From assembly GCF_003732275.1 (NCBI RefSeq), contig NZ_MOBM01000015.1, positions 49,862-113,861 of the forward strand: a DNA stretch of 64,000 bases. Direction: 5' to 3'. Every line of letters starts with the position of its first letter. The stretch's first letter is position 1. Source of the stretch: Pseudomonas frederiksbergensis (GTDB taxonomy: Bacteria; Pseudomonadota; Gammaproteobacteria; Pseudomonadales; Pseudomonadaceae). Of the stretch, positions 3,867-59,010 are shown piece by piece. A program made the translations under genes and the position numbers. The notes beneath the pieces are model-generated. The model saw only the letters and a list, made by a program, of their open reading frames with translations, did not search any database and was not told the DNA's origin.

Positions 3867-3935
3867 GCCGGCACCTTATAAGCCTGGGAAAGTGCCGGGA
3901 GAATAAGTCAGTAAGGTTTCTGAACGATGACAGAT

Positions 3936-4015: not shown

Positions 4016-4018
4016 CTT

Positions 4019-4831: not shown

Positions 4832-5132
4832 GGTCGGCAGTCCTGGCAAAAGTGCGATGCTAGCTGACATGTAGGAACGGGGCCAGCCTTGGGGTGAGGC
4901 GATTCGTTTTTGCCCGTCAGCTTTGTGTAGGCCGTTATGGCCCAATCGCGAGCAGGCTCGCTCCCACAGGTTATGAGTCTGGTCTATACCTTGTGGGAGC
5001 GAGCCTGCTCGCGATGACGGTTTAAGTACCACCACTGATTTCGGATCAGTCAGGAACTGTGCAAGCGCCAACACGCTCGTAACAATAAGAGCGCCGCCAT
5101 TTTTTAGCCGCGCCCAGGGGAGATCTACCGTT
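4832..5132. other. Intergenic region between xthA and GNAT gene
   Basis: About 300 bp between divergent genes. It holds the REP pair listed at 4945 and presumably both promoters. The 5' part of the apparent open frame upstream of xthA (4832-5155 minus) runs through the REP and is not coding. Confidence 0.6.
4945..5015. repeat. REP pair, gggagcgagcctgctcgcgat family
   Basis: Inverted arms atcgcgagcaggctcgctcc and its complement lie about 24 bases apart. This is the commonest REP family in the window, with further pairs at 11274, 16357, 21180, 29717 and 58916. Confidence 0.88.
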
Positions 5133-5783: not shown

Positions 5784-5847
5784 AGGTAGAACTTTCGCGG
5801 CAGGTCAGGCTCTATCAGGCCCCTAGGCTCGTGATAGCATCCGCGCT

Positions 5848-10500: not shown

Positions 10501-11246
10501 TCTCCGATGACACGGTGATCGTCGGTCAGCAGACTGAAGAGGGCAAACCGCCGATGGCCATGGCGATGGACATCGATGTGGTGGTGGGGGAGGACAAGCT
10601 GAGTTTTACCGGGTTTGGCCTGACCGCCAACCTGCAAGGTCATGTGCATATCGGTGACAACATGGACACCCGAGGCGAGCTCTGGCTCAACGACGGGCGA
10701 TATCGCGCCTACGGTCAGCGACTGACGGTGCGCCGGGCGCGTCTGTTGTTTGCCGGTCCCATCGATCAGCCGTACCTCGATATCGAAGCGATTCGCCAGA
10801 CCGACGACGTCATCGCCGGCATTCGCCTGAGTGGCAGCGCCGAGCAGCCGACCACGCAGATCTTTTCCGAACCGGCGATGAGTCAGGAGCAGGCATTGTC
10901 CTATCTGGTGCTGGGGCGTCCGTTGAGCACGACCGGTGAAGACAACAACATGCTCGCCCAGGCCGCCCTCGGGTTGGGCTTGATGGGCAGCTCCGGCGTG
11001 ACCAGCGGCTTGGCCAAGGATCTGGGCATTCAGGACTTCCAGCTCGATACTCAGGGCAGCGGTACCAACACCGCAGTGGTGGCCAGCGGCAATATTTCGG
11101 AGAAACTCAGCCTGCGTTATGGCGTCGGCGTGTTCGAGCCGGCCAACACCATCGCCTTGCGCTACAAACTGAGCAAAAAGGTCTACCTCGAAGCCGCCAG
11201 CGGCGTGGCCAGTTCGCTGGACATCTTCTACAAGCGGGATTTCTAA
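7572..11246 (+). CDS. tamB: TamB, inner-membrane-anchored translocation/assembly module protein
   Basis: A 1,224-residue AsmA/VPS13-like bridge protein. An N-terminal hydrophobic anchor (residues about 7-28) is followed by a very long, low-complexity beta-rich body that forms a hydrophobic groove across the periplasm. The C-terminal DUF490 domain (from about residue 890) ends in aromatic YKRDF and is thought to engage TamA. The GTG start overlaps the tamA stop. The length is typical of Gram-negative TamB (about 1,200-1,260). The segment AQAALGLGLMGSSGVTSGLA near residues 1130-1150 belongs to the conserved C-terminal part. A REP pair follows the stop. Confidence 0.96.
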   Translation: MKRGLKITLLAIPALLMLIVLTLVTVLGTPTGSRWALGFVPGLTVENFQGRLGGQWSADHLVWQQDSSRVELNKAIFAWSPLCLMRMTLCIEQLQAEQVSLQFPPGVEEQSSGPISLPDLKLPLAIELGDVKIGRLVFNGSEELKGLQLAAHWTEKGLQIDSVHLQRDELSLNLSGLLQPSGNWPLTAEGKLTLPSPGTEPWALVLKVDGDLLKTLNLKADSSGYLNGQLTGELQPLAENLPANVRITADGFKPSADLPDTLQLNQLELTGDGDLKNGYQLLGKAMLPAEQGPVALLLQGKVDAKGAQIAGLDLTANDKQSLKLTGQVDWSKGLNAEAKIDWLDFPWHRLYPLIDEPQVALRSFNGEVSYTDGNYIGNFKAALDGPAGAFSLNSPFSGDLTKIHLPQFKLEAGQGKAEGHLNLQFADGIAWDTALDLSAINPAYWLAELPGTLAGPLRSKGEMKNETLSLTADLDLKGKLRGQPAILQAKADGGGERWNLSALQVRLGDNSINGQGSLQQKLAGRIDIKMPRLAQLWPQLRGQLNGRVDVAGTLKAPQGKLGLQGTQLAFEDNRLQSLNLDATLDSAQRAKIDLKGSGIQTGDTSLGTLTASGQGDIKNQKLALDLQGPKLKLALGLDGALDKGNWRGRLASGDIQAGGQDWKLQNPAKLERLADGKINFGAHCWMSGPASLCGEDQRLMPEPKLRYHLKQFPIDSLAQWLPKDFAWKGKLNADLQLDLPASGPNGQISIDASGGTLRMREKEQWLDFPYQTLKLTSKLTPKRIDTDLNFVGGKLGELMVQAQINPLPKNKPLTGSFRLSGLDLSVARPFVPMVEKLTGHLSGSGTLSGGLLAPLVNGNLELRDGEISGPELPMALQALQLQAVIAGETVQLNGGWKSGKSGQGSLNGNIAWGQALVVDLALKGSHLPVTVEPYAALEVAPDLKISMKDDRLAIVGKVLVPKGEITVRELPPSTVKVSDDTVIVGQQTEEGKPPMAMAMDIDVVVGEDKLSFTGFGLTANLQGHVHIGDNMDTRGELWLNDGRYRAYGQRLTVRRARLLFAGPIDQPYLDIEAIRQTDDVIAGIRLSGSAEQPTTQIFSEPAMSQEQALSYLVLGRPLSTTGEDNNMLAQAALGLGLMGSSGVTSGLAKDLGIQDFQLDTQGSGTNTAVVASGNISEKLSLRYGVGVFEPANTIALRYKLSKKVYLEAASGVASSLDIFYKRDF

Positions 11247-11273
11247 CCCGCGTACTTTCTCCAAACCGAGTTG

Positions 11274-11347
11274 CCGCTATCGCGAGCAGGCTCGCTCCCA
11301 CAGGGATCACACCGAACCTGTGGGAGCGAGCCTGCTCGCGATAGCGG
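11274..11347. repeat. REP pair, gggagcgagcctgctcgcgat family
   Basis: Inverted arms ccgctatcgcgagcaggctc and its complement form a compact hairpin of about 74 bases between tamB and the MarR gene. Confidence 0.88.
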
Positions 11348-11397
11348 TCTAACGGCTGCCATTTATCAGTCAAATACAAAGCAGCCTAACTATTGCG

Positions 11398-11425
11398 TTG
11401 ACATTCTCTGCCTAGGCAGTAACAT
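11398..11425 (+). promoter_or_regulatory. Predicted sigma-70 promoter of the MarR efflux operon
   Basis: A perfect -35 hexamer TTGACA at 11398-11403 is followed after 16 bases by TAACAT at 11420-11425 as the -10. The first MarR operator copy lies across the -35 end and spacer, so a bound repressor would block polymerase. Transcription would begin near 11432. Confidence 0.6.
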
Positions 11426-11452
11426 CTCGACATACATTCTCTGCTTAGGCAG
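11401..11452. promoter_or_regulatory. Two direct-repeat palindromic operators, probable MarR binding sites
   Basis: Two 19-base copies, acattctctgcctaggcag at 11401-11419 and acattctctgcttaggcag at 11434-11452, differ at one base. Each contains an inverted-repeat core (ctgcctaggcag and ctgcttaggcag). They are spaced 33 bp apart, about three helical turns, so two dimers would sit on the same face. One overlaps the promoter spacer and the other lies at the predicted transcription start. This fits autorepression by the MarR protein encoded 16 bp downstream. Confidence 0.75.
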
Positions 11453-11467
11453 CTAATTGGCGGTCAG

Positions 11468-11947
11468 ATGAAACATTTCTCCTCATACGATTTCCATAAT
11501 TGCCATCTCGGCCTTTTGCTCGGGCGCGCCGCGCTGCTCAAGGACCGGATCATCGACACGCACATGGAACCCCATGGCATCACCGCCGCGCAGTTCAAAG
11601 TGCTGATCATCATGGCCCAGTTCGGTGTCGATACCCCGGCCGAGCTGTGCCGTCACCTGTCGCTGGACAGCGGTTCGATGACCCGCATGCTCGATCGTCT
11701 GGAACAGAAAGGTTTCCTCGCCCGCCAACGCTCCGAGGCAGACCGGCGTCAGGTTCAGTTGGTGCTGACCGAACAGGGCCAGCAGCTGACCGATCAGCTG
11801 CCGCAGATCGGCGCCGATGCCATGAATGAGCTGGCCGGCGCCATCACGCCGGAAGAATTGAAAACCCTGGAACAGATCCTGAAGAAAATTCTGGTAGCCG
11901 CGGGTGACTCAATCACTCTGCTGCGGGTAGGTGGCCATGAACAGTAA
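11468..11947 (+). CDS. MarR-family transcriptional regulator of the efflux operon
   Basis: A 159-residue winged-helix repressor. Residues about 35-125 contain the helix-turn-helix (PAELCRHLSLDSGSMTRMLD) and the wing with the family signature RQRSEADRRQVQLVLTEQG. It is the first gene of an apparent operon whose next three genes encode a tripartite drug-efflux pump, so it is very likely the local repressor, released by a phenolic or drug-like ligand. Its 3' end overlaps the start of the outer-membrane component gene. Two palindromic repeats in its promoter are its probable operators. Confidence 0.92.
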   Translation: MKHFSSYDFHNCHLGLLLGRAALLKDRIIDTHMEPHGITAAQFKVLIIMAQFGVDTPAELCRHLSLDSGSMTRMLDRLEQKGFLARQRSEADRRQVQLVLTEQGQQLTDQLPQIGADAMNELAGAITPEELKTLEQILKKILVAAGDSITLLRVGGHEQ

Positions 11948-13406
11948 AAGCCTGCGTACCGGTCTGAGCCTGGTGCTGTTGGCCATGAGCCTCGCCGGTT
12001 GTGCCAGTTACAGCGGCCTGACCACCGAAGGCGTCAGCCTCGATGCGAAAAATCTCAAGGCCGGGCAATCCCTCAACGGCGTGACCCTGTCGCCCGCCGC
12101 GTGGCCAAAAAGCGATTGGTGGAAAAGCCTTGGCGATCCGCAACTCGATGGCCTGATCCGCGAAGCCCTGCACGACAGCCCCGACATGCAGATCGCCGAC
12201 GCCCGCGCCCATCAGGCCAGTGCCGCTGCCTATGCCGCCGACGCCGCGCGGATGCCGACCCTGGATGCCAGCGCTGGTGTCAGCCGTTCGCGTCTGGCCC
12301 GCGATCAGGACCCGAGCGGGCAGGGCGGCACCTATTCCACCGTGCGTAATCTCGGTGCGAGTTTCAATTACAACTTCGACCTTTGGGGCGGTCAGCGCGA
12401 TGCCTGGGAAGCCGCATTGGGCCAGGCCCGTGCCGCCGAAGTCGATCAGCAGGCCGCGCAGCTGACCTTGTCTGCCGATGTCGCCCGCGCCTACAGCGAT
12501 CTGGGGCAGGCGCACATCATCCATGACCTGGCCAGTGAAGACCTCAAGCGCACCCAACAAATGCTCGACCTCAGCCAGCGTCGCCTGAGCTCGGGGATCG
12601 ACAGTCAGTACCAGTTTCAACAGACCGAAAGCCTGGAAGCCAGCGCCGAAGCCAGCCTGATCGACGCCGAGAAACGCCTGCAAAGCGCGAAAATCGCCTT
12701 GGCGGTGCTGCTGGGCAAAGGCCCGGATCGCGGCAATGAAATCGCCCGACCGAAAGTTCTCCAGGCCAGCGCCGTGGCTTTGCCGTCGGTGCTGCCGGCG
12801 GAACTGCTTGGTCGTCGTCCGGACCTGGTGGCGGCACGCTGGCGGGTTGAAGCCGCGAGCAAAAACATCGCGGCGGGCAAGACTCAGTTTTACCCCAACC
12901 TCAACCTGAGCGCGGCGGCGGGTGTCGAGTCGTTGCTGGGCGATGCGATGTTCGGTTCTGCGAGTCGCTTCTTCAATGTCGCGCCAACGATCTCGGTGCC
13001 GATTTTCGACGGCGGCCGTTTGCGGGCCGACCTTGATTCCCGCGACGCCGATTACGACCTCGCGGTGGCGCAGTACAACAAAAGCCTGGTGAAAGCCCTG
13101 GGCGATGTCAGCGACACCATCAACCAGTTGCGCGATATCGGCCGGCAAATCGGCACCCAGCAGCACGCCACCGACATTGCCCAGGATTCTTACAACACCG
13201 TGGTCCAACGCTACGGTTCCGGCATCGGTAATTACCTGGACGTGCTCAGCATCGAGCAGCAATTGCTCCAGGCCCAGCGTCAGCTGGCCAACCTGAATGC
13301 CGAGCAGATCGACCTGTCGATTCAACTGATGCAAGCGCTGGGCGGCGGCTTCCAGGGCGAAACCCTGACCGCGGCCAACGCAACCCCAGCCACGCAGCAC
13401 AACTAA
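11937..13406 (+). CDS. NodT-family outer-membrane efflux lipoprotein
   Basis: An outer-membrane channel of about 489 residues of the TolC/OprM type. The N-terminus is a lipoprotein signal peptide with lipobox LAGC about 24 residues from the start. Two OEP repeats follow, rich in long helices that form the periplasmic tunnel. Typical elements are WWKSLGDPQLDGLIREAL and, near residues 285-300, LLGRRPDLVAARWRVEAAS. The start at ATG 11937 was preferred; an in-frame GTG lies two codons upstream at 11931. Both overlap the marR stop, suggesting coupling. It should carry drugs exported by the HlyD/DHA2 pair downstream across the outer membrane. Confidence 0.93.
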   Translation: MNSKSLRTGLSLVLLAMSLAGCASYSGLTTEGVSLDAKNLKAGQSLNGVTLSPAAWPKSDWWKSLGDPQLDGLIREALHDSPDMQIADARAHQASAAAYAADAARMPTLDASAGVSRSRLARDQDPSGQGGTYSTVRNLGASFNYNFDLWGGQRDAWEAALGQARAAEVDQQAAQLTLSADVARAYSDLGQAHIIHDLASEDLKRTQQMLDLSQRRLSSGIDSQYQFQQTESLEASAEASLIDAEKRLQSAKIALAVLLGKGPDRGNEIARPKVLQASAVALPSVLPAELLGRRPDLVAARWRVEAASKNIAAGKTQFYPNLNLSAAAGVESLLGDAMFGSASRFFNVAPTISVPIFDGGRLRADLDSRDADYDLAVAQYNKSLVKALGDVSDTINQLRDIGRQIGTQQHATDIAQDSYNTVVQRYGSGIGNYLDVLSIEQQLLQAQRQLANLNAEQIDLSIQLMQALGGGFQGETLTAANATPATQHN

Positions 13407-16343: not shown

Positions 16344-16356
16344 TGGAACACAATCC

Positions 16357-16447
16357 CTGTGGGAGCGAGCCTGCTCGCGATAGCGGATTCAAATTCAACA
16401 TCTTTGTTGAGTGATACTCCGCTATCGCGAGCAGGCTCGCTCCCACA
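16357..16447. repeat. REP pair, gggagcgagcctgctcgcgat family
   Basis: Inverted arms ctgtgggagcgagcctgctc and its complement surround a spacer of about 35 bases. The pair lies between the convergent MFS and lpxH genes. Confidence 0.88.
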
Positions 16448-16467
16448 AGGGTTTTGTGTTTTGGCCG

Positions 16468-29716: not shown

Positions 29717-29808
29717 CGCCATCGCGAGCAGGCTCGCTCCCACAATTGAACTGCATTCTTTCTGACAGAACGTGACCCCCTGTGGGAGCGAGCCTGCTCG
29801 CGATGGCG
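29717..29808. repeat. REP pair, gggagcgagcctgctcgcgat family
   Basis: Inverted arms cgccatcgcgagcaggctcg and its complement surround a spacer of about 40 bases, between the ABC operon terminator and the convergent antitoxin gene. Confidence 0.88.
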
Positions 29809-46969: not shown

Positions 46970-47066
46970 CCCTGTGGGAGCCGGGCTTGCCCGCAATGGC
47001 GGTGTGTCAGACGCTGCAGATGTTGGCTGAAAGGTCGCCATCGCGGGCAAGCCCGCTCCCACAGGG
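46970..47066. repeat. REP pair, gggagccgggcttgcccgc family
   Basis: Inverted arms ccctgtgggagccgggcttg and a near complement (one mismatch) enclose about 45 bases. This REP variant, with ggcttgccc, is not seen elsewhere in the window. It lies just outside the 9-kb cassette. Confidence 0.84.
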
Positions 47067-47091: not shown

Positions 47092-47171
47092 CAAAAAAAC
47101 GCCCCGAACCAGTCGGGGCGTCAGATGAGCGGCTTTGCGGTCAGCTTTTTATTCGGTCCGCACCGGCCGTT
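47092..47171. repeat. Left copy of 80-bp direct repeat flanking the cassette
   Basis: The 80 bases at 47092-47171 match 56087-56166 in the same orientation with three differences (47142, 47163, 47164). The first 71 bases differ at only one position. The right copy is the 3' flank and terminator of aceA. The left copy occupies the same place relative to the SDR gene. Confidence 0.93.
47093..47120 (-). terminator. Terminator of the SDR gene (duplicated aceA terminator)
   Basis: On the minus strand the stem cgccccga / tcggggcg, with a five-base loop, is followed by seven T residues. It lies about 65 bases after the SDR stop and is identical to the terminator after aceA. Confidence 0.87.
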
Positions 47172-47184
47172 CGTTCCGGCATCT

Positions 47185-47946
47185 CTATATGCAGCTGTGA
47201 CCTCCGTCGATGACCAGGTCGGCCCCGGTCATCCATGAAGATTCATCAGATGCCAGAAGGATGGCAGCGCCGGCCATATCTGAAGGAATCCCGGCGCGCT
47301 GCATGGGAATGTCCTTTTTTCTGTTTTGCCAAATTTCCGGGGCGTCCCGCCACTGGTTGGCGTTACCACTGGTCGCAGTCAGTCCGGGTGAAATAGTGTT
47401 GACTCTGATGCCATAGGGAGCCAGTTCTAGTGCGCAGCTTCGCGAGAGCATCGACAGCGCTGCTTTGCTCGCCTGATAAGCTGACATTCGGCTGACCGCC
47501 CTGAAGGCGCTGACCGATGAAATATTAATGATGCTGCCGCCCTGTTTACGAGCAATGCAGGCTTTTGCAAAGCATTGAGTCATAAAGAAGGGAAAGCGGA
47601 GATTGACTTCAAGAGTCTGTTCATATTCGTCTTCGCTCAATTCCAGAAATGGAGTGCGAGTTATAAAGGCTGGGTTATTGACGAGTATGTCTAATGGTCC
47701 GATGGCAGCATGCGCTTTCTCAAGAAGTGCATCAGCACTAGTACTAGCAGCATCCATGATTGTGAAGCCGGCCCGCTGGCCAGGGTGCTCAGCTAACGCA
47801 ATGACTGCATGAGCCCCGGTTTCATCGGTACGGGCGGTAATGAAAACATCGGCGCCCTCCGCAATGAAGGTTTCGGCGATAGCTCTTCCAATACCGGCCG
47901 ATGCGCCAGTCACAAGTGCGCGTTTGCCTCTTAGTCTTCCATTCAT
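47185..47946 (-). CDS. SDR-family oxidoreductase of the cassette
   Basis: A 253-residue classical short-chain dehydrogenase, FabG-like. The NAD(P)-binding TGASAGIG is at residues 13-20. The catalytic Ser lies in NISSVSAF and the Tyr-Lys pair in SAYQASKAAL. The usual NNAG motif reads NNPAF. The C-terminal ASDESSWMTGADLVIDGG is typical. ATG 47946 was chosen; an in-frame GTG lies seven codons upstream. It is divergent from the eight-gene unit and ends in a duplicate of the aceA terminator. It probably reduces or oxidises a keto/hydroxy intermediate of the cassette's product. Substrate unknown. Confidence 0.88.
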   Translation of the reverse strand: MNGRLRGKRALVTGASAGIGRAIAETFIAEGADVFITARTDETGAHAVIALAEHPGQRAGFTIMDAASTSADALLEKAHAAIGPLDILVNNPAFITRTPFLELSEDEYEQTLEVNLRFPFFMTQCFAKACIARKQGGSIINISSVSAFRAVSRMSAYQASKAALSMLSRSCALELAPYGIRVNTISPGLTATSGNANQWRDAPEIWQNRKKDIPMQRAGIPSDMAGAAILLASDESSWMTGADLVIDGGHSCI

Positions 47947-48272
47947 AAGTGATTCTCTGCAGGACACGTCTGATGGCCGCGCGCGTGCTGCGAGCGGAGG
48001 AATTGGTTTTATCTGATTTTCGGGAGGATTTAGTAAAGCTGATTATTACAGTTTCAAGATATGCAATGGTTTTTCAGAGGATTCCTACAGGTCATTCGTT
48101 TTCTGGTGAAGGGCTTTTCTTGAGTGTTGGTAATGGGTGGTTTTTTTAAGCTAATGGAGAGTTTTTATTAGGTAGGATCAACCGCTAAATAGTTGGCGCG
48201 TATTGGATGTTGGCTGAGGGTTGGTTGTTCGGATGATCCTGTTATATAGGCTCTTATAAAAAGAGGTCGTGC
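47947..48272. promoter_or_regulatory. Divergent promoter region of the cassette
   Basis: This 326-bp AT-rich gap separates the SDR gene from the eight-gene operon. A candidate plus-strand promoter is TTGGTT (48221-48226), 16 bases, then TATATA (48243-48248). The ribosome-binding sequence AAGAGG (48261-48266) lies six bases before ATG 48273. No operator for a regulator was recognised and no regulator gene is in the cassette. Confidence 0.5.
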
Positions 48273-49511
48273 ATGCCAGAGCAAAAAAACAAGTATATAA
48301 ATACTGCTAAGTCCGTCGAAATCGGTAATCCATCCTGGGCGCTTGCGCAAGATTCGGGGCTTACCGATTTGAGTGTCGAGCATACTCGACAGGGTCGCAT
48401 GCAAGATCAGAGCGGTCATGAGTTCATGAATATGTGCTCTTGTTCATATTTGGGACTTGAGGTCGATGAGCGTTTGGCGCGACGTGCCGCAGACTATGTA
48501 TTGAGCTGCGGTACCGTGAATTTGCCCACCTCGCGTATCAGAATAAGATTGAAAGAGCTCGATGAGCTGGAAGACGCCTTGTCTGCGCATTTCAATTGTC
48601 GAGCATTTACAGCGACTTCTTGCAGCGCGGGCATCGTCGCGTCTCTGCCCCTGCTGGCAGCCGGTATGTTTACTGATGGCCAGCGCCCTGTGATGGTTTT
48701 TGATAAGCATGCTCATTTCGCATTGAACCAGGTCAAGGCCATCTGTGGTGATGAAACGCAGGTTGTCACTTGCAATCACAATGACGTCGACTTCATTGAG
48801 GATATGTGCAAGCGGCATCCTTTGGTCGCTTATATTGCTGACGGTGCTTACAGCATGGGGGGAAGTGCACCAATTGAGCGGCTGATGGATTTGCAGGACA
48901 AGTATGGGTTGTTTCTCTACTTTGATGACTCTCACTCATTGAGTGCCTACGGCGAACGGGGCGAGGGCTATGTTCGTACTTTCATGCCTGAGCTCAATCC
49001 ACGGACCCTGCTGGTTTATTCATTGGCCAAGGCATTTGGCGCCAATGGTGGCGGCATATTCATGTCAGAGAAGGCCAACTATCAAAGTGTTTTCCGTCGT
49101 TTTGGCGGTCCTATGTCCTATTCGCAATATGTAAATCCCGCCGCTATAGGCGCGGCCATGGCTTCTCTGGATATTCACCAGACCAGTGAGCTTGGCGTTT
49201 TGCAGCAGAAACTCTGTGCCAATATTCGTCTGTTCGACAGCTTGTTTGAGACGGAACACTCGGGCTCGGGTCTACCGATTCGGGTTATTCCATTGGACAG
49301 TCCGGATATGGCGATTGGCGTTTCCGAGGGGGTCTTCAAACGAGGCTATTACACCTCGGCAGTATTCTTCCCCATCGTGGCCAGGAACAAGTCCGGTTTG
49401 CGCGTGATGATGCGTGCAGACATGTCCCAAGGAGATGTTCGGAGTTTCTGCTCTGCTGTCCAGGCAGAAGTCGAAGAGTCCCGTCTGAACATGAAACCTG
49501 TCCAGGGTTGA
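48273..49511 (+). CDS. Alpha-oxoamine-synthase-like PLP-dependent enzyme
   Basis: A 412-residue fold-type I PLP enzyme resembling 8-amino-7-oxononanoate synthase, KBL and CqsA. The PLP-binding lysine is K253 in SLAKAFGANGGG. The segment YFDDSHSLSAYGERGEG (D219, H221) corresponds to the cofactor-binding DEAHS region. MNMCSCSYLGL near residue 52 matches the N-terminal YLGL motif. Family members condense an acyl-CoA or acyl-ACP with an amino acid and lose CO2, giving an alpha-amino ketone. It is the first gene of the eight-gene unit and ends 9 bp before the next gene. Its substrates are unknown; DDSHS in place of DEAHS suggests a divergent member. Confidence 0.87.
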   Translation: MPEQKNKYINTAKSVEIGNPSWALAQDSGLTDLSVEHTRQGRMQDQSGHEFMNMCSCSYLGLEVDERLARRAADYVLSCGTVNLPTSRIRIRLKELDELEDALSAHFNCRAFTATSCSAGIVASLPLLAAGMFTDGQRPVMVFDKHAHFALNQVKAICGDETQVVTCNHNDVDFIEDMCKRHPLVAYIADGAYSMGGSAPIERLMDLQDKYGLFLYFDDSHSLSAYGERGEGYVRTFMPELNPRTLLVYSLAKAFGANGGGIFMSEKANYQSVFRRFGGPMSYSQYVNPAAIGAAMASLDIHQTSELGVLQQKLCANIRLFDSLFETEHSGSGLPIRVIPLDSPDMAIGVSEGVFKRGYYTSAVFFPIVARNKSGLRVMMRADMSQGDVRSFCSAVQAEVEESRLNMKPVQG

Positions 49512-49520
49512 GAGGATACG

Positions 49521-50348
49521 ATGACCAATCCTATACCAAGAAGTTTGCTGTATTGCTCGGCCTTACACCCTGAGCAATATGCCAAAAGTGCTCTGACGGA
49601 TGTGATGGTGATAGATCTGGAGGATGGTGTTCCGCTTACCAGGAAAGCTGAAGCCCGGTTGTGTGTCGAACAGTTCTATCGCTCTCCTGTTGCGCAGCGT
49701 ACGGCACTGCGTATCAATCCTCTGCGTGATAATCAAGGGTTGCTCGATCTGCTGCTGGTGCTGTCGCTTGAACAGCGGCCCGAATTTATCGTCTTGGCAA
49801 TGACTGAAGCGGCGGCCGAGATAGAGGTGGTGCGCTCCAATTTAAATCGCAATGGAGAAAGTCCGAAAATATTGGTCACCGTCGAAACACCGACCTGTCT
49901 GCGTGATATTTACGCCATTGCATCAAGTGCCGACGGACTGATCTTTGGTTCCGCCGACTATGCGGCCAGTCTGGGCGTGCAGATCGGTGGCTGGAGCAAC
50001 ATCCTGCATGCGCGCGGGAGCATCGTCGCAGCCGCAAGCGCCGCGGGTGTTCCCGCGTTCGACACCGCTTACTTCAATCTCGACGACGAAGCGGGCCTGC
50101 TGAAGGAATGCCAGGACACCCGGGAGTTGGGATTCAGTGGCAAGACCTCCATTCACCCAAGGCAGATTCCCATCATCAATGATGTATTCACTCCATCCAT
50201 CGCTGAGTACGAACATGCCTTGGCAGTTGTGCAGGCTGCGCAGAACAGTGGGGAAAAAATCACCCGGTTGAAAAACCTCATGGTGGGGCCGCCGTTTGTG
50301 AAGCAAGCCAGGAAGCTTATCCAGCGCGCCCGGGAACTGGGTCTCTAA
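49521..50348 (+). CDS. CitE/HpcH-family CoA-ester lyase
   Basis: A 275-residue TIM-barrel protein related to CitE, malyl-CoA lyase and citramalyl-CoA lyase. Conserved residues include the DLEDGV segment (32-37), Arg64 in LRINPL, Glu122 in VTVETPT, Asp146 in GSADYAAS and the SIHPRQIPIIND signature. The family cleaves, or in reverse forms, 3-hydroxyacyl-CoA esters, often with glyoxylate, pyruvate or oxaloacetate as the keto partner, with Mg2+ held by the Glu and Asp. The gene begins 9 bp after the PLP enzyme gene and ends 10 bp before a MaoC-like gene. That pairing is known from beta-methylmalyl-CoA and itaconyl-CoA pathways. Confidence 0.87.
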   Translation: MTNPIPRSLLYCSALHPEQYAKSALTDVMVIDLEDGVPLTRKAEARLCVEQFYRSPVAQRTALRINPLRDNQGLLDLLLVLSLEQRPEFIVLAMTEAAAEIEVVRSNLNRNGESPKILVTVETPTCLRDIYAIASSADGLIFGSADYAASLGVQIGGWSNILHARGSIVAAASAAGVPAFDTAYFNLDDEAGLLKECQDTRELGFSGKTSIHPRQIPIINDVFTPSIAEYEHALAVVQAAQNSGEKITRLKNLMVGPPFVKQARKLIQRARELGL

Positions 50349-50358
50349 GGAGAAAGAT

Positions 50359-50883
50359 ATGGAACCGATGATTCCGGCCCATGTACGGATCGATGCTAAC
50401 CGCTACCGTGAATCTTATGGCCTGCATTACGAAGAGTTTGTAGTGGGTGATGTGTTCGAACACCGCCCCGGCCGTACTGTGACGGAGCTGGACAACATCT
50501 GGCAGTCACTGGTGAACATGAACAACCATCCAGCCCATATCGACGTTGCTTATGCCCAGCGCACCGAATTCGAGAAGTTGCTAGTCAACAGCTCGGTGAC
50601 GTTGTCGATCATCAGCGGCATGACGGTAGCGACCATGAGTGCCCGGGCAATCGCAAACCTGGGCTGGGACGAAATTCGTCTGCCCAATCCGGTTTATGTT
50701 GGCGACACCTTGTACGCCGAGAGCGAGGTTGTCTCCAAGCGTGAATCCCGATCGCGTCCCGGCCAGGGCATCGTCACCATCAGGGTTATTGGGCGTAAGC
50801 AGGATGGCACCCCCGTGATCACTTACCTGCGCACCTTTCTGGTTCCAAAGCAGGGGCATTCCCAGGACTACCCGGTCGGCTAG
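50359..50883 (+). CDS. MaoC-family acyl-CoA dehydratase/hydratase
   Basis: A 174-residue hot-dog-fold protein. The hydratase active site (Asp and His) lies in VTELDNIWQSLVNMNNHPAHID, with D45 and H60 as likely catalytic residues. The WQSLVNMNNHPAH wording resembles mesaconyl-CoA and itaconyl-CoA hydratases rather than fatty-acid R-hydratases. A central PVYVGDTLYAESEVVSKRES segment fits the fold. Together with the lyase upstream it could interconvert a hydroxy-dicarboxylyl-CoA and an unsaturated acyl-CoA. The exact substrate is not determinable. Confidence 0.87.
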   Translation: MEPMIPAHVRIDANRYRESYGLHYEEFVVGDVFEHRPGRTVTELDNIWQSLVNMNNHPAHIDVAYAQRTEFEKLLVNSSVTLSIISGMTVATMSARAIANLGWDEIRLPNPVYVGDTLYAESEVVSKRESRSRPGQGIVTIRVIGRKQDGTPVITYLRTFLVPKQGHSQDYPVG

Positions 50884-50949
50884 ATGTCTGTGCTGCCAGC
50901 TCGAGGATGGCTGGTAACTTCAAAAAGCGTTGATGGAAAAGGAAAAGCC

Positions 50950-51939
50950 ATGCTGCTTCTTAATCGCGAAGATATCGGGCGTTGTGTCGAGTTGCCAACG
51001 CTTGTCCGCGCACTTGAAAAAGCCCACCAGGGGTTTGCGCTCTCACCTCCCGTGGTTCCGCAGCGCTCGATCATCACTCACGAGCGACAAAAAGCGTTCT
51101 CTTTGTTCATGCCGGCCTTTTTGCCCGGAAGCCAGACGCTGGGCATCAAAGTGTCGTCGTTTCATCCCGGCAACGCGGTGCACGGATTATCGGCGGTCAA
51201 TGGTGCGGTCTTGTTGATCGATATCGTAAGCGGGCAATTGTTGGCGATGCTTGACAGTGCAGCCCTGACGGCGATTCGTACCAGTGCCATGAGTGCGCTG
51301 GCGACGGACAAGCTCTGCCTTCGGATACGGCTTGATCTGGCGGTGATCGGCGCAGGGGCTCAGGCTGCTGCGCATATCAAGGCGATGGCTGCTATCAGGG
51401 ATCTTGGCCAGATCAGGATATTTTCCCGTTGCCTGGCCCGAAGTGTCGCTTTGGCCGAGCGCCTGTCCATTGAGCTTTCGCTACCGGTAGAGGCCGTGAA
51501 CCGGATGGAGGAGGCGCTGGCCGATGCGGACATTGTCTGCACGACGACCTCCCATGACAGCCCGCTGCCCTTGATTGGGGCGAATCAGCTCAAACCCGAT
51601 GCCCATATCAATGCCATTGGTGGCAGTACACCTCAGGCGTGCGAAATCGATCCGCGGTTACTGGGCAATGCGCGGGTTCATGTTGATCATCCGGGCGCCG
51701 CATGCCGTGAGTCGGGCGAAATTGCCCAGGCGCTGGCGTTGGCGGTGATTGATCGCAAGGACATTCAGGAGATTGGTGCCTTGGCTATCGAGCAGCCTTC
51801 GCCGGCAACCCGCAAACAAGGTCTGAGTTACTTCCGCAGCGTTGGACATGCCAGTCAGGACATGGTGGTTGCCGCCTGCCTCTACGACGCGGCCGTGTCG
51901 GGGCATATCGGCAAACAGTGCCACTACCTCAGTGCCTGA
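50950..51939 (+). CDS. Ornithine cyclodeaminase/mu-crystallin-family protein
   Basis: A 329-residue NAD(P)-binding protein. The Rossmann motif GAGAQA is at residues 134-139. Family residues are K67 in IKVSSFHPGN and the block TAIRTSAMSALA near 107-118. Members include ornithine cyclodeaminase, ketimine reductases, alanine dehydrogenase and the siderophore enzyme SbnB, so the reaction may be deamination or imine reduction. ATG 50950 was chosen because an AAGGA sequence precedes it and the family N-terminus begins there. An earlier in-frame ATG at 50884 abuts the previous stop. Confidence 0.83.
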   Translation: MLLLNREDIGRCVELPTLVRALEKAHQGFALSPPVVPQRSIITHERQKAFSLFMPAFLPGSQTLGIKVSSFHPGNAVHGLSAVNGAVLLIDIVSGQLLAMLDSAALTAIRTSAMSALATDKLCLRIRLDLAVIGAGAQAAAHIKAMAAIRDLGQIRIFSRCLARSVALAERLSIELSLPVEAVNRMEEALADADIVCTTTSHDSPLPLIGANQLKPDAHINAIGGSTPQACEIDPRLLGNARVHVDHPGAACRESGEIAQALALAVIDRKDIQEIGALAIEQPSPATRKQGLSYFRSVGHASQDMVVAACLYDAAVSGHIGKQCHYLSA

Positions 51940-51995
51940 GAGCCACGAGGTGAGTAATTTTGAATCGGCGGTGCTGCCGGTCAGGGAGGGAAAAG

Positions 51996-52979
51996 ATGCC
52001 CATGAATATTCTGATGATCGATTCGCAGAGAGTGAATTATGTCGACCCCGGGGAGTATGTCCCGGGTCCGGAGCATCGACGCTATAGCCTTGAGGTCACA
52101 TCCCGGCCCTCGGATGAACAATTGGCCCGGGCCGAGGGGATCATCGCCTTTCATTCGGTCGTCATCGACGCGCCATTGGTTGCCAGGATGCATCGTTGCC
52201 GCGCATTGGTGAAGGCAACCATTGGCCTTGATGATGTGGATGTCGAGGCTTTGAGCGCGAAAGGCATTCTTTGTTCGAACATCGGCTCTGTGGGGGCGGA
52301 GGAAGTCGCGGAGCACGCCCTGGCGTTGATCCTCTTCGCCCAGCGCAAGCTTCTCGACTACGCCAGACACACCCGGCAGGGCGGCTGGAGCTGGCGAGCT
52401 CATACCGGCGAGGTCAAAGCCTGCGCAGACACGGTCCTGGGGTTGATCGGTTATGGCGCAACAGGGCGAGCATTGGCGCGCAGAGCGGCGGCCCTGGGTT
52501 ACCGGATCCGTTTTTACGATCCTGGGGTCGAGCGCTGTGTCGCAGGTATTGCGCAGGGCGACACGCTGGAGTCGTTGCTCGATACGGCCGATGTCATATC
52601 GCTGCATCTGCCTCTTACCCCGGACACAGCGCATTTGATGAACGATGGGCGATTTTTGCGGATGAAACGCGGTGCGACCCTGGTCAATACTGCGCGAGGT
52701 GGCCTCGTCGATACCGATGCTTTGCTCCGGGCTCTGCAATCCGGTGGTGTGTCCATGGCACTGCTGGATGTCGTGGAAGAGGAGCCGGCACCTCCCCGGG
52801 CCTTGATCGAGCATGAGCGTGTGTTACTGACACCGCATGCCGCTTTTTACAGCGAGCGTTCTCTGGCGCAATTGAAGGCCAATGCCCTGGAAACGATGCT
52901 CGGTCTGCTACAGGGAAAAACAGTCAAAACGGTGGTTAATCCCGATTGCGTATCGGGAGAGGCAAAAGGAAATGCCTGA
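51996..52979 (+). CDS. D-2-hydroxyacid dehydrogenase-family protein
   Basis: A 327-residue NAD-dependent dehydrogenase. The Rossmann glycine motif GYGATG is at residues 152-157. The catalytic Arg, Glu and His are R234 in NTARGGLVDTDALL, E263 in VEEEPAPP and H281 in LLTPHAAFYSE, so the catalytic set is complete. A GGGAGGG sequence five bases before ATG 51996 supports this start. It should interconvert a 2-keto acid and a D-2-hydroxy acid. It overlaps the next gene by eight bases. Confidence 0.87.
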   Translation: MPMNILMIDSQRVNYVDPGEYVPGPEHRRYSLEVTSRPSDEQLARAEGIIAFHSVVIDAPLVARMHRCRALVKATIGLDDVDVEALSAKGILCSNIGSVGAEEVAEHALALILFAQRKLLDYARHTRQGGWSWRAHTGEVKACADTVLGLIGYGATGRALARRAAALGYRIRFYDPGVERCVAGIAQGDTLESLLDTADVISLHLPLTPDTAHLMNDGRFLRMKRGATLVNTARGGLVDTDALLRALQSGGVSMALLDVVEEEPAPPRALIEHERVLLTPHAAFYSERSLAQLKANALETMLGLLQGKTVKTVVNPDCVSGEAKGNA

Positions 52980-53715
52980 ACTAAAGCGTGTGGGACTCGA
53001 ACCTTCCCGAGCCGGGTTGCCAGCCTGGTTCGATGTGACGATCGGCAACAGCATTGTTCAATACGGTCAGCGCCTGGCGGCGCGACAGCTATTGGTCAAT
53101 ACGCTGGGCAATATCGCCGTACGCTGTCACTGCCCGTATTGGCAGCGCGAAGTGATCTACACCAAACACCGCGGCGTCTCCCTGGAAGAGTGCGGTCTTG
53201 AACATCTGGCTGTGCTGGATATGCAATCCGATGAGCTTTTGCACGGTCGTTTCAGGCCCAGCCTGGGGCATCAGATGCACCGGGAAATCATGCGCTGTCG
53301 CGCTGATGTCAATGCCACGGTGCATCTTCATCCCAATGAAGTCATTTCCTTCTTCGCTGTCATGCAGTGGCGTGAGATGGAGTACGTGTCGAACGACACG
53401 GCACTGGTCATGGGCAAGCCGCCGTGCATTCTGGGCGAAGGTGTGAATATAGAGCTGGATGTCAGTGCCATCGGCCGCTGCGCCAGTGACACCAACTGCA
53501 TTGTCATGCCCAGCCATGGCATTACCTGTTTTGGCCGCGACCTGTCCGAGGCGTTTCATCGTGCCGTGGCATTCACTGCGGAAATCAGCCGTTTGATTAC
53601 CAGCCAGTATTTGTCGGCAGCCACGGGGAAGTCGGTGGTGTATGCCAGCGGCGAAGAGGTCAGGCAGATGTATGCGGCTGGCGAACAGATTATCTATGGA
53701 GGGATGCACAAATGA
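52972..53715 (+). CDS. Class II aldolase/adducin-family protein lacking the usual catalytic Glu
   Basis: A 247-residue zinc-type class II aldolase/epimerase/dehydratase homologue (FucA, AraD and MtnB family). Zinc ligands H118 and H120 lie in TVHLHPNE and H182 in PSHGITCFG. The residue four before H103, the position of the catalytic Glu73 in FucA (SSEWRFH), is Gly99 here (LGHQMH). The normal acid-base residue therefore appears absent, and the reaction may differ from the family. ATG 52972 overlaps the dehydrogenase stop and follows an aaaagga sequence. It is coupled to the aminotransferase gene by a four-base overlap. Confidence 0.82.
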   Translation: MPELKRVGLEPSRAGLPAWFDVTIGNSIVQYGQRLAARQLLVNTLGNIAVRCHCPYWQREVIYTKHRGVSLEECGLEHLAVLDMQSDELLHGRFRPSLGHQMHREIMRCRADVNATVHLHPNEVISFFAVMQWREMEYVSNDTALVMGKPPCILGEGVNIELDVSAIGRCASDTNCIVMPSHGITCFGRDLSEAFHRAVAFTAEISRLITSQYLSAATGKSVVYASGEEVRQMYAAGEQIIYGGMHK

Positions 53716-54857
53716 AGTTTCATGATCACATCTCGTGTTCCGGATTATGGAAAGCGCCGGAGCGCGATCTTTCATCGGTGTTGCTGGATCTGAATGAAAA
53801 CCAGTTTTTACATAAGTTTCTGGCAGGGTTCATTGCCAACGAATTGAAGCCCCAGGATCTGTTCGCCTATCCCAATTATCAGCCTCTCCTTAACGAACTG
53901 TCACAGTATTGCAAGGTTTCGACCGACAGTTTGCTGCTGACCAATGGGGCGGATCAGGCCATCGATCTGGTGATACGGTCAGTGTTTTCGCCAGGGGACA
54001 GGGTGGTGGTTCCTTCTCCGATTTTTTCCTTCTATTACCAGATGCTCGAAGTCAATGGCGTGGTGCCGGTGATCGTGGGGTTCGAGAAGCAAGCCGAAAA
54101 ATTCGTGCTACCCACCGAGGCTGTACTCCAATCCTTGCAAACCAGCCATGGACTGATCCTGTGTAACCCCAATAACCCCCTGGGCGTACGCATCGATCCT
54201 GAGCAATTGAAAGTTCTGGTCGAGGCTTGTGTAAGGCAAGACAAGCCGATGATCGTTGACGAATGCTACTTTGAGTACCTGCAACAATCGTGTCTGGATA
54301 CATTTGGCGCAGTCAGGCAGCTATTTGTCATTCGTTCGTTCTCCAAGTACTTCGGTCTCGCCGGGTTACGGCTGGGGTATGTGGTCATGCGACCGGAATC
54401 AGTCCGTGAACTGTTGAAAGTGCGCGGCCCTTGGGATGTAAACCATGTGGCGGTGAAAGCTGCGTTGTTCTGTTTGCAGAACCAGCAAGCCTTGCAGCAG
54501 GCGCACGATAATCTCGCGCAGATCAAGAGTGAAATTGTCGAAGTCTGTCGGGCCAACTCGATCGTCGTGTACGAGAGCGATACGAATTTTCTGCTGCTAC
54601 AGGATGAGCGCGATGGTCGTCTGGCCAACGCTTTCGCTCAGGCCAATATTCGCGTAAGCAACTGTTCGCAATACCCTCACAGCTTTGGCCTGCTCAACAA
54701 TTTATTGCGTGTGGCCGTTCCTTCGTCGTCGGATCTCAAAACATTTCTGATGGCGTTATTGCGTGGGAGCTGCAGTGCGGCTTGCTTGAGCGATGTGAAA
54801 CTGAAGTACTGGATTGCCCAAAGGCCAGCGTTGCGAACTTGCGGAGTATCAAGGTGA
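53712..54857 (+). CDS. HisC-like class I/II aminotransferase
   Basis: A 381-residue PLP enzyme in the histidinol-phosphate aminotransferase branch. Cofactor residues are N154 in CNPNNPLG, D183 in IVDECYFEY, K212 in RSFSKYFGLAGLRLGY and the distal Arg near residue 343 in LLRVAVPS. The final 30 residues (from about 352) extend past the normal HisC end and are rich in Cys and Arg. Their reading may reflect overlap with the next gene's leader. It could introduce an amino group on a 2-keto or aldehyde intermediate, or make the amino donor. Substrate unknown. Confidence 0.85.
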   Translation: MKFHDHISCSGLWKAPERDLSSVLLDLNENQFLHKFLAGFIANELKPQDLFAYPNYQPLLNELSQYCKVSTDSLLLTNGADQAIDLVIRSVFSPGDRVVVPSPIFSFYYQMLEVNGVVPVIVGFEKQAEKFVLPTEAVLQSLQTSHGLILCNPNNPLGVRIDPEQLKVLVEACVRQDKPMIVDECYFEYLQQSCLDTFGAVRQLFVIRSFSKYFGLAGLRLGYVVMRPESVRELLKVRGPWDVNHVAVKAALFCLQNQQALQQAHDNLAQIKSEIVEVCRANSIVVYESDTNFLLLQDERDGRLANAFAQANIRVSNCSQYPHSFGLLNNLLRVAVPSSSDLKTFLMALLRGSCSAACLSDVKLKYWIAQRPALRTCGVSR

Positions 54858-54864
54858 TCCTCAA

Positions 54865-56058
54865 GTGACGGTGTGGCTGAAAAGGATCGGTCTGGCGGCA
54901 GGGATGCGCAATATCATTCTTCTCCGGTTGCTGTTCGTCATGGCCAATGCGTTGGGGCCTTTTGCTGCCCTGTTTTTCCAGCGGCACTACCAGCTCGACA
55001 GCTCGGCGGTGGCCTGGGTGATCACGCTGATGTCGGCGTTTTATCTGCTGGGCAATCTATTGGGCGGGGCGCTGATCGGTCGTTGTTCCTTCCGGACACT
55101 TTTGATTTGTACCTCTTCCTGTTCATCGCTGTTTTTGTTGGTCGCTGCCGTGCTCGGTTCGTCGATCGCATCCACTGTGATGGTGCTGTTGTTCATGCTG
55201 TGCGCGGGCCTGATCACGCCGGTATTCAGTGTTCTTACGTCTTTGGCGGCGGACGAAAGCAATCGCATCGCCTCTTTTGGCTATCTGCACCTGGCCAGCA
55301 ATCTGGGGGGCGCGTTACTGTTCGTGATCGGTGGGTACTTGCTCGGCCTCGACAGCCACTATCTGGTGCTGTTTGCGATGGTCGCCAGCGTGTTGTGCCT
55401 TTTGGCGAGTGTCTTTCTGGCGTTGCCGGAACGCCAGAACGCTATGACTGAGGCCAGAAGGACCTCCATTGGCGCTTTAGTCGATGTGCCAAGGATCGTG
55501 ATCGTTGCGGGCGCGATGTTCTTTGTGTTGTCGGTTCTGGATGCGCAGCGCGAATATCAATTGCCGCTATGGCTTGATGGGGTGACGGCGGGCAAGGCCG
55601 CCGGCCTGTTCGGCGCGGTAGGTATCGTGAATGCGTTGCTGGTGGTCGTGTTGACGCAACCACTGATTGCATTGACGTCGCGTTTCGGGGCGTTGACCAA
55701 TCTGTCCCTGGCGGCGGTTTTTTACGGTATCGGATTTGGCGCCTATGCCTTTTTCGAGCAGACCATTCTGATCCTCTCGTTTGTGTTTTTCTGGACGCTG
55801 GGTGAGATTCTCGGCGTTACCTACGTCACTGCGTTGATTGCGCAGAAAACCACATTGCAAACCCAGGCCAGTTTGTTCTCCCTTATTCCGATCCTGCTGG
55901 CGGGGGCGAGGATGGTGTCCGTAGGCATTGGCGCCTCGTTGATCACAGGGGTCGGTTTCCAGCTGAGCTGGAGTATCTATGGGCTGTTGGGCGTCTTGTT
56001 CGGGGGAGGTTGTCTTCTGCTTGCTGCCAGGAGGAACCGCTACGCGACCTCAGTATGA
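54865..56058 (+). CDS. MFS transporter of the cassette
   Basis: A 397-residue, roughly 12-helix major facilitator protein. The helix 2-3 loop and helices 4-5 are recognisable (SAFYLLGNLLGGALIGR, then LHLASNLGGALLFVIGGYLLG). The start is uncertain: GTG 54865 was chosen because an aaggtga sequence lies about eight bases upstream and gives a normal cytoplasmic N-terminus. ATG 54904 is an alternative. It ends the operon, convergent with aceA. Its position suggests export of the product or resistance to it. Confidence 0.83.
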   Translation: MTVWLKRIGLAAGMRNIILLRLLFVMANALGPFAALFFQRHYQLDSSAVAWVITLMSAFYLLGNLLGGALIGRCSFRTLLICTSSCSSLFLLVAAVLGSSIASTVMVLLFMLCAGLITPVFSVLTSLAADESNRIASFGYLHLASNLGGALLFVIGGYLLGLDSHYLVLFAMVASVLCLLASVFLALPERQNAMTEARRTSIGALVDVPRIVIVAGAMFFVLSVLDAQREYQLPLWLDGVTAGKAAGLFGAVGIVNALLVVVLTQPLIALTSRFGALTNLSLAAVFYGIGFGAYAFFEQTILILSFVFFWTLGEILGVTYVTALIAQKTTLQTQASLFSLIPILLAGARMVSVGIGASLITGVGFQLSWSIYGLLGVLFGGGCLLLAARRNRYATSV

Positions 56059-56086
56059 TCCGGCGCAGTGATGGAAAAAACGCGGA

Positions 56087-56166
56087 CAAAAAAACGCCCC
56101 GAACCAGTCGGGGCGTCAGATGAGCGGCTTTGCGGTTAGCTTTTTATTCGGTCCGCAAGGGCCGTT
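56087..56166. repeat. Right copy of 80-bp direct repeat flanking the cassette
   Basis: This copy, next to the aceA stop at 56184, has 77/80 identity to 47092-47171. It contains the aceA terminator hairpin and the ggctttgcgg segment downstream of it. Confidence 0.93.
56088..56115 (-). terminator. Terminator of aceA
   Basis: On the minus strand the stem cgccccga / tcggggcg is followed by seven T residues, some 70 bases after the aceA stop. The same structure ends the SDR gene at the other side of the cassette. Confidence 0.87.
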
Positions 56167-57509: not shown

Positions 57510-58019
57510 GGGGATAAACCTCGTCGCGTCTTTAATCGAAAGTGGTTCTGGGTGGACAATTCCTGTGTGCCAAATACGCATTTCAAAGGGGCGTAAAAGG
57601 CTGCTCGCTGACCAGAAGCTTAGGCGGTCAAGTCGGGTTCGGCGGGGATGGCGACGGGATGAACGATGGGCTCGAGGGGAAGTGAGCAGGTAAGGGCGAA
57701 CTGGCGAGCGCATTCGGGCGTCGTGGGCCTTGGTACGAACTTCAGTGTGGAGCCGGGTTACCTAATTACGCTTCCGTCCCTCGGGACAACTTCGTTCCAG
57801 TCGGCAACCTCGTCAAACACACCTTGTGGGCGGTACAGACACGAATCGGCTCGCGGGGTAGGTGCGAACAGCGACTCGAAAGCCCTTGCCAGGGCCTCTG
57901 ATTAGCGGGAGCGAGGCCATCATGCCTTTGCTTTTTTGGCTCGTCAAACGTTTTGTAGTGCTTTTTTTAAAGCACTACATCTTTGGTCTAATACGACTAA
58001 TCAGTCAGTTTTTGGTGCT
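57510..58019. other. Long region upstream of aceA
   Basis: About 510 bp without a convincing gene. It is GC-rich and has several short hairpins: gtccctcgggac at 57776-57787, an interrupted stem ggcctc/gaggcc at 57893-57918, and a 9-bp palindrome gtagtgctt/aagcactac at 57955-57978. A long structured leader or small RNA is possible but unproven. The aceA promoter must lie here. Confidence 0.5.
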
Positions 58020-58915: not shown

Positions 58916-59010
58916 CATCGCGAGCAGGCTCACTCCCACAGGGTTTTAGGTGTTGTTACAGATTGCAGCAACACCATCAATCCACTGTGGGAGCGAGCCT
59001 GCTCGCGATG
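58916..59010. repeat. REP pair, gggagcgagcctgctcgcgat family
   Basis: Inverted arms catcgcgagcaggctcactc and the complement of the standard arm (one mismatch, ctcactcc for ctcgctcc) enclose about 45 bases. Confidence 0.87.

What the first reader, a model, noticed from the sequence alone, without database searches (positions are those of the whole stretch)
47092..56166. Nine-gene biosynthesis and export cassette between nuoA and aceA
An SDR and eight close-packed genes encode an alpha-oxoamine-synthase-like enzyme, CitE-like lyase, MaoC-like hydratase, ornithine-cyclodeaminase-like protein, D-2-hydroxyacid dehydrogenase, class II aldolase-like protein, HisC-like aminotransferase and MFS exporter. 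No NRPS, PKS or carrier protein is present. The set suggests construction of a small amino-ketone or non-standard amino acid. I could not match the combination to a described pathway; that is a statement about my recall, not a search.
Basis: partly seen in the sequence, partly recalled or inferred. Interest (0 to 1): 0.88.

Follow-up and report, generated by a model that had tools for sequence, protein, structure and literature searches.

The report
Probable leucine-mimic antibiotic gene cluster
A small set of enzyme genes in this Pseudomonas probably makes and exports an amino-acid-like antibiotic; in some sister strains the same set sits beside a spare leucyl-tRNA synthetase, a likely self-protection gene, which points to the target.

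Summary
The nine genes are real and intact, inserted between nuoA and aceA and bounded by two copies of the 80-bp aceA terminator. The eight-gene core is found in seven Pseudomonas loci. Window-type AOS occurs in 6 of 298 Pseudomonas genomes, so it is not universal. The new fact lies outside the window: in 4 of 7 core loci, and in one partial cluster, a full-length second leucyl-tRNA synthetase (51-54% identical to housekeeping copies) follows the exporter, directly or after one gene. Seven of 298 genomes carry this gene. At nuoA-aceA one has it alone and one has it with only the exporter intact, which suggests producer, resistant-only and empty alleles. Two other clusters with AOS and CitE-like genes carry an extra methionyl-tRNA synthetase; 15 AOS-only loci show neither. 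Best reading: a carrier-free pathway to a leucine-like antimetabolite aimed at LeuRS. Against it: the window strain, GM80 and G189 lack the second LeuRS, and no residue unique to their three housekeeping LeuRS was found. Product, activity and resistance are inferred. Text searches listed no matching pathway; MIBiG could not be searched.

The parts
47092..47171 (.). 80-bp direct repeat, nuoA-side copy of the aceA terminator
   Evidence: 96% identical to 56087-56166; 10-pair terminator stem on the - strand. Of eight empty-site loci compared (L089-L096), six match over 78-80 bp at 85% or more, beside aceA; L095 and L096 match more weakly
47185..47967 (-). SDR oxidoreductase, divergently transcribed; variable member
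   Evidence: PF13561/PF00106; orthologue in PS833 and AS1; only a 26-residue fragment in GM80; a different SDR in G190, GD04091, G189
48273..49511 (+). alpha-oxoamine-synthase-like PLP enzyme (AOS, PRK07505 group)
   Evidence: nearest solved chains 8xha/8xhd/8xhk/8i7u; PMC11906848 names 8XHA as Alb29; catalytic Lys aligned
49521..50348 (+). CitE/HpcH-type lyase, RipC-like
   Evidence: RipC_Ccl 192.2 bits (cutoff 375), citE 119.7
50359..50883 (+). MaoC-type enoyl-CoA hydratase/dehydratase, RipB-like
   Evidence: RipB_Ich 224.2 bits (cutoff 340)
50950..51939 (+). ornithine-cyclodeaminase/mu-crystallin-like reductase (longest frame starts 50884)
   Evidence: start chosen by comparison with relatives
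51996..52979 (+). D-2-hydroxyacid dehydrogenase-like (longest frame starts 51960)
52972..53715 (+). class II aldolase-like protein (longest frame starts 52882)
   Evidence: only weak similarity to solved aldolases
53712..54857 (+). HisC/CobD-like PLP aminotransferase or decarboxylase
54865..56058 (+). MFS exporter (longest frame starts 54814)
   Evidence: PF07690; orthologue in all seven full-core loci
56087..56166 (.). 80-bp direct repeat, aceA-side (native) copy of the terminator. In AS1 a second leuS lies between MFS and aceA; in PS833 it follows MFS and the contig ends soon after. Here it is absent

Best explanation
The eight core genes form a biosynthetic operon for a small, exported, leucine-like antimetabolite aimed at leucyl-tRNA synthetase. 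Inferred route: the CitE-like and MaoC-like enzymes make an unsaturated branched acyl-CoA (by homology to the itaconate enzymes RipC/RipB, run in the forming direction). The AOS joins it to an amino acid with loss of CO2 and CoA. OCD, D-hydroxyacid dehydrogenase, class II aldolase, the HisC/CobD-like enzyme and an SDR finish the molecule, and the MFS protein exports it. Producers with the complete locus protect themselves with a second, divergent LeuRS encoded just downstream of the exporter. The window strain has the pathway but not that gene. Shown: gene content, synteny, purifying selection, linkage of the second LeuRS in sister loci, and the polymorphic insertion site. Inferred: chemistry, product, toxicity, resistance function.
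For: Full-length second LeuRS (TIGR00396, 978.5 bits, cutoff 548.4) directly downstream of MFS in PS833 and AS1, behind one extra desaturase-fold gene in GD04091 and G190, and in the partial cluster of G037. Catalytic motifs HMGH and KMSKS are intact in the eight copies aligned. Second LeuRS in 7 of 298 Pseudomonas genomes, window-type AOS in 6 of 298, both in 3 (hypergeometric P 1.6e-4, relatedness ignored). Resistant-only states at nuoA-aceA: G252 has leuS alone; G243 has MFS plus leuS with SDR, DHDH and AT remnants. Two other AOS clusters carry an extra MetRS: G366 (52% to its other copy) and G076. None of 15 AOS-only loci has a LeuRS or MetRS hit (other synthetases not sought). ATP-grasp ligase in G190, nearest BacD, and its 79% relative in G037. 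dN/dS 0.039-0.228 in 26 comparisons. Not on plasmids as a cassette: no DNA match, no aldolase match at 1e-30.
Against: The window strain, GM80 and G189 have an apparently complete core but a single, housekeeping LeuRS, so the second LeuRS is absent from 3 of 7 full-core loci. Window and GM80 group together (support 0.955), which suggests one old loss while the genes stayed under purifying selection between these two. No residue is shared by the housekeeping LeuRS of those three strains and absent from the six other strains aligned (private changes in one strain were not examined). Four of the seven genomes with the second LeuRS have no window-type AOS. Of eight other AOS + CitE loci, six have no LeuRS or MetRS. 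No substrate, product or activity has been tested. RipB/RipC scores are below cutoff.
Confidence: 0.6

Rival explanations
1. The operon makes a non-toxic small molecule (signal, osmolyte, volatile or metal ligand) and the second LeuRS in some relatives is a separate resistance gene that landed at the same site.
For: Window, GM80 and G189 keep the core without the second LeuRS. leuS also occurs alone at nuoA-aceA in G252 and elsewhere in G077 and G204.
Against: LeuRS follows the exporter at nuoA-aceA (AS1; PS833 seen from the nuoA side only) and also in GD04091, G190 and G037, whose fetched stretches hold no nuoA or aceA. In G243 it is kept with the exporter while the enzymes are reduced to remnants. 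Extra MetRS genes occur in two other AOS-CitE clusters.
Confidence: 0.2
2. Self-protection differs: the product is exported as an inactive conjugate or acts on another target, and the second LeuRS is an optional extra or a LeuRS with altered specificity that keeps the unusual amino acid out of proteins.
For: A BacD-like ligase in G190 and G037 would make a dipeptide prodrug. All seven full-core loci keep the MFS gene.
Against: No relative of that ligase in the window, GM80, PS833, AS1, GD04091 or G189 loci. Otherwise not separable from the best explanation by sequence.
Confidence: 0.3
3. A catabolic operon of the itaconate type (RipB/RipC) or amino-acid breakdown.
For: CitE and MaoC are nearest RipC and RipB in NCBIfam.
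Against: No CoA-transferase (RipA) among the nine. Scores are below the equivalog cutoffs. Window-type AOS is in only 6 of 298 genomes. Linked synthetase genes in relatives do not fit breakdown.
Confidence: 0.07

Closest known systems
Agrocin 84 / AgnB2 (Agrobacterium K84; PMC5059758, passages read)
   Same: A producer locus protected by a second, insensitive LeuRS.
   Different: TM84 is a leucyl-adenylate-like nucleotide analogue. AgnB2 has KQSKS and lacks the LS domain (PMC5059758); the Pseudomonas copies have KMSKS and near-normal length, 860-864 against 868 residues. The agrocin enzyme set was not compared. The gene is absent from the window.
Alb29 alpha-oxoamine synthase of the albogrisin pathway (8xha; named in PMC11906848, passages read)
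   Same: Nearest solved relative of the window AOS (E 1.3e-87). Alb29 is reported to use L-glutamate and acyl-CoAs.
   Different: Substrate of the window enzyme unknown; the rest of the albogrisin cluster was not compared.
Itaconate degradation RipB/RipC
   Same: Nearest NCBIfam families of MaoC and CitE.
   Different: Below cutoffs, no RipA, embedded in an operon with an exporter.
Bacilysin (BacD ligase)
   Same: Carrier-free amino-acid antibiotic logic (recalled); a BacD-like ligase in G190 and G037.
   Different: No ligase in the window cassette; the other bacilysin genes were not compared.
Furanomycin of P. fluorescens SBW25 (PMC3662646, passages read)
   Same: Pseudomonad non-proteinogenic amino acid charged by a branched-chain synthetase (IleRS); its effect is reversed by Leu, Ile, Val.
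   Different: Target is IleRS; the passages read name no biosynthetic genes; no link to this cassette was tested.

Membership tests
Antimetabolite cluster with self-resistant aminoacyl-tRNA synthetase | Second synthetase gene inside the locus | tested here: inconclusive
   Met in PS833, AS1, GD04091, G190 and partial G037; NOT met in the window, GM80 and G189
Antimetabolite cluster with self-resistant aminoacyl-tRNA synthetase | Synthetase copy apparently intact and distinct from housekeeping copy (in the relatives that have it) | tested here: met
   51-54% identity, motifs intact, full length; the G204 copy has one internal stop
Antimetabolite cluster with self-resistant aminoacyl-tRNA synthetase | Product inhibits the housekeeping enzyme but not the copy | not testable with these tools
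   needs compound and enzymes
AgnB2 (agrocin 84 LeuRS) | KQSKS loop in place of KMSKS | tested here: not met
   KMSKS in the eight cluster-type copies aligned
Itaconate catabolism (rip operon) | RipA CoA-transferase present | tested here: not met
   none among the nine proteins
Itaconate catabolism (rip operon) | RipB and RipC scores at or above the NCBIfam cutoff | tested here: not met
   224.2 vs 340 and 192.2 vs 375
Alpha-oxoamine synthases | PLP-dependent family with Schiff-base lysine in the SxxKxxGxxGG-type motif (motif recalled) | tested here: met
   SLAKAFGANGGG aligned with SLNKGFGASGGA of 8xha
Alpha-oxoamine synthases | Decarboxylative condensation of acyl-CoA and amino acid | not testable with these tools
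   needs enzyme assay
NRPS/PKS clusters | Carrier, condensation, adenylation or ketosynthase domains | tested here: not met
   none among the nine; the SDR has a secondary KR-model hit (32.1 bits)
Bacilysin-type dipeptide antibiotics | L-amino-acid ligase in the cluster | tested here: not met
   Absent from the window cassette; of the eight window-type loci present in G190 and G037 only
Known cluster in MIBiG | Matching gene set in the database | not testable with these tools
   MIBiG not available; text searches only

The most novel reading that the evidence does not exclude
AOS plus CitE-like plus MaoC-like (often OCD, SDR) is the core of an unrecognised family of carrier-free antimetabolite clusters spread over Pseudomonas, other gammaproteobacteria and Rhizobium. 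Each makes a different amino-acid mimic, and some are paired with a spare copy of the synthetase they poison (LeuRS in the window family, MetRS in G366 and G076). The nuoA-aceA site of Pseudomonas is an arena of producer, resistant-only and empty alleles.
Probability: 0.42. Interest if true: 0.85.

Novelty: new variant of a known kind. Interest (0 to 1): 0.7.

Why it matters
If true, a set of genes that NRPS/PKS-based mining may well not flag makes a LeuRS-directed antibiotic whose target can be read from a neighbour gene. It offers a direct test (gene removal, leucine rescue, two enzymes side by side), a natural producer/resistant/empty polymorphism at one chromosomal site, and a search handle (AOS + CitE + MaoC + spare synthetase) for more such compounds.

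Tried and rejected
Considered and dropped: the CitE-containing antibacterial cluster of Pseudomonas sp. P482 (PMC4880745, passages read), which has different genes; furanomycin, with IleRS as target and no genes named in the passages read; a resistant housekeeping LeuRS in the strains without the second copy (no residue unique to the three together); plasmid carriage of the cassette (no match; single genes below 60% identity do occur on plasmids: MaoC in 39 records, and AOS in 128); riboswitch or leader RNA (the one Rfam hit lies outside the cassette); promoter scan (6 found against a mean of 6.4 in shuffles, uninformative). Differences between the two LeuRS types exist (144 alignment columns fixed differently, a few of them gap columns), but no resistance residue can be named. 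The structure-prediction and fold-search tools were not used.

Literature searches. Judged from the listings (titles, starts of abstracts), none describes this combination. One search listed 20 of 39 papers, one search listed 10 of 2,692 and one search listed 12 of 1,210. The library holds open-licence PubMed Central papers only. Passages were read in PMC4880745, PMC11906848, PMC5059758 and PMC3662646; no paper was read whole.
Full report
OBSERVATION. The window lies on a 195-kb contig (C17) of a 7.24-Mb genome in 44 contigs, contamination estimate 9.64%; the genus is Pseudomonas by its near relatives. The cassette is continuous with nuo genes and aceA, so it is not a stray contig. GC is 54.7% against 59.9% and 59.8% in the flanks. 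The stated limits are the outer edges of two 80-bp direct repeats, 96% identical, each carrying the aceA terminator hairpin.

INSERTION SITE. In eleven relatives fetched (L089-L099) aceA and nuoA lie within about 1.2 kb of each other, and none of the cluster proteins compared matches there. Eight of them (L089-L096) were searched for the repeat: six match over 78-80 bp at 85% or more, beside aceA; in L095 and L096 the match is weaker or partial. On the nuoA side G243 carries a second terminator copy plus a 43-residue piece of aceA, and G189 carries broken pieces of aceA. The insert therefore seems to come with a duplication of the aceA 3' end, of which the window keeps only the terminator. Recombination there is inference.

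DISTRIBUTION. An AOS at least 74% identical occurs in 6 of 298 Pseudomonas genomes: G000, G208, G230, G190, G037, G189. The other 59 of the 65 genomes with hits carry 37-47% relatives. A pattern scan of the GTDB contigs with the aldolase, which finds close relatives only, gave five loci, all Pseudomonas: GM80, PS833, AS1, GD04091, and a broken piece in P. rubra. The eight-gene core is found in seven loci: window, GM80, PS833, AS1, GD04091, G190, G189. In GD04091 the aldolase is split over two frames. The window, GM80, AS1 and G189 lie between nuoA and aceA. PS833 shows nuoA on one side and its contig ends soon after leuS. The fetched stretches of GD04091, G190 and G037 hold neither nuoA nor aceA. 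Pairwise dN/dS of window genes against GM80, PS833 and AS1 is 0.039-0.228 in 26 comparisons. No plasmid match of the cassette was found.

THE SECOND LEUCYL-tRNA SYNTHETASE. In PS833 and AS1 the frame after the exporter is a full-length leucyl-tRNA synthetase (TIGR00396 978.5 bits). GD04091 and G190 have it behind a fatty-acid-desaturase-fold gene. G037 has it in a reduced cluster with AOS, a BacD-like ligase, exporter and desaturase-fold gene. The PS833 copy is 51-54% identical to housekeeping LeuRS in the matches listed. Over 298 genomes the cluster-type copy (74% or more) occurs in seven: G208, G252, G243, G077, G037, G190 and G204; the G204 copy has one internal stop. Three of these seven also hold a window-type AOS; hypergeometric P for three or more is 1.6e-4, ignoring relatedness. 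G252 has leuS alone between aceA and nuoA. G243 has exporter plus leuS there, with short remnants of SDR, hydroxyacid dehydrogenase and aminotransferase. G077 and G204 have leuS without the cluster elsewhere. Empty, resistant-only and full alleles thus exist at one site; 'resistant' is inference.

WHAT SPEAKS AGAINST. G000 (the window), G230 (GM80) and G189 have one LeuRS only, the housekeeping type. In the tree of six joined core proteins, window and GM80 are sisters (support 0.955), so a single old loss is the simplest account, and the genes still show purifying selection between these two. An alignment of eight cluster-type and nine housekeeping enzymes found no residue shared by the housekeeping enzymes of the three strains and absent from the other six. 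These strains may rely on export, on a prodrug or on low production, or the LeuRS reading may be wrong.

WIDER FAMILY. AOS, CitE, MaoC and OCD also stand together in three Pseudomonas genomes with another MFS gene (L033, L076, L077), in G392 (L116) and, with an SDR about 50% identical to the window's, on a Rhizobium lusitanum plasmid (L108). In G366, AOS, a distant CitE-like gene (26%), SDR and MaoC are accompanied by an extra methionyl-tRNA synthetase, 52% identical to the copy elsewhere in that genome. In G076, AOS, CitE and SDR (no MaoC hit) are accompanied by a divergent second MetRS on the same 16-kb contig; the other copy is on another contig. G998 has AOS, CitE and MaoC with a 409-residue 2-isopropylmalate synthase that matches about the first 384 of 516 profile positions; a longer copy, 58% identical, lies elsewhere in that genome. 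Counting distinct loci, a LeuRS or MetRS gene lies in 5 of 8 window-type loci (G037 included, which lacks CitE) and in 2 of 8 other AOS + CitE loci, against 0 of 15 AOS-only loci. The loci are not independent, their lengths differ, and G366 is a draft of 88% completeness.

MECHANISM. The AOS is nearest Alb29 (8xha), reported to use L-glutamate with acyl-CoAs (PMC11906848, passages read). CitE and MaoC are nearest RipC and RipB, well below the cutoffs that define those enzymes. Run in the forming direction they could give an itaconyl- or mesaconyl-type CoA, whose branched carbon skeleton resembles the side chain of leucine; this is inference. The remaining enzymes could reduce, cleave or transaminate it to an amino acid. 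A BacD-like ligase in G190 and G037 fits an amino-acid warhead. None of the steps has been assayed.

KNOWN SYSTEMS. The nearest precedent for the logic is agrocin 84 with its self-immunity LeuRS AgnB2 (PMC5059758, passages read). The Pseudomonas enzymes do not share the AgnB2 KQSKS change. Searches of the open literature listed no description of this gene set, judged from listings; MIBiG and subscription journals could not be searched.

VERDICT. A real, rare, conserved cassette. The most likely function is synthesis and export of a leucine-like antimetabolite. The window carries a version without the presumed immunity gene seen in several of its sisters.

Noticed in passing
window 57684-57902 (-): Match to the Rfam sRNA family SrbA (RF02872, 84.2 bits, gathering 69) upstream of aceA.
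   Followed up: no
L026 8261-8720 (G189) and L101 6082-6210 (G243): Broken second copies of part of aceA on the nuoA side of the insert, beside the duplicated terminator in G243: traces of how the insert arrived.
   Followed up: partly
L028-L032, L034, L037, L039: A pair of a 42-47% AOS relative and an MFS gene (28-32% identical to the MFS of L033) recurs in Pseudomonas, with no CitE or MaoC hit nearby. Function unknown.
   Followed up: partly
L112 (G366) 1-9692: Cluster with AOS, CitE-like, SDR, extra MetRS, 4-HPPD-like protein, FMN 2-hydroxyacid oxidase-like protein, Glu/Leu-dehydrogenase-like protein and MaoC; the HPPD-plus-oxidase pair recalls hydroxyphenylglycine synthesis (recalled).
   Followed up: partly
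L027 (G076) 2400-12352: Pseudomonas cluster with AOS, CitE, second HpcH/HpaI protein, SDR, alcohol dehydrogenase, methyltransferase and a second, divergent MetRS.
   Followed up: partly
L113 (G998) 1111-11992: AOS, CitE, MaoC, MATE exporter, desaturase-fold protein and a short second 2-isopropylmalate synthase in one region.
   Followed up: partly
L024 16266-17003 and L026 15673-16407: AbiEi-type antitoxin-like regulator between aminotransferase and exporter in G190 and G189; no partner toxin looked for.
   Followed up: no
L021 10001-10221: P. rubra holds only a broken piece of the aldolase gene: a relic of the cluster.
   Followed up: partly
window 46970-47066 and elsewhere: Palindromic REP-like repeats upstream of nuoA with weaker copies at 16352-16456, 29778-29808 and 58916-58958.
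   Followed up: no
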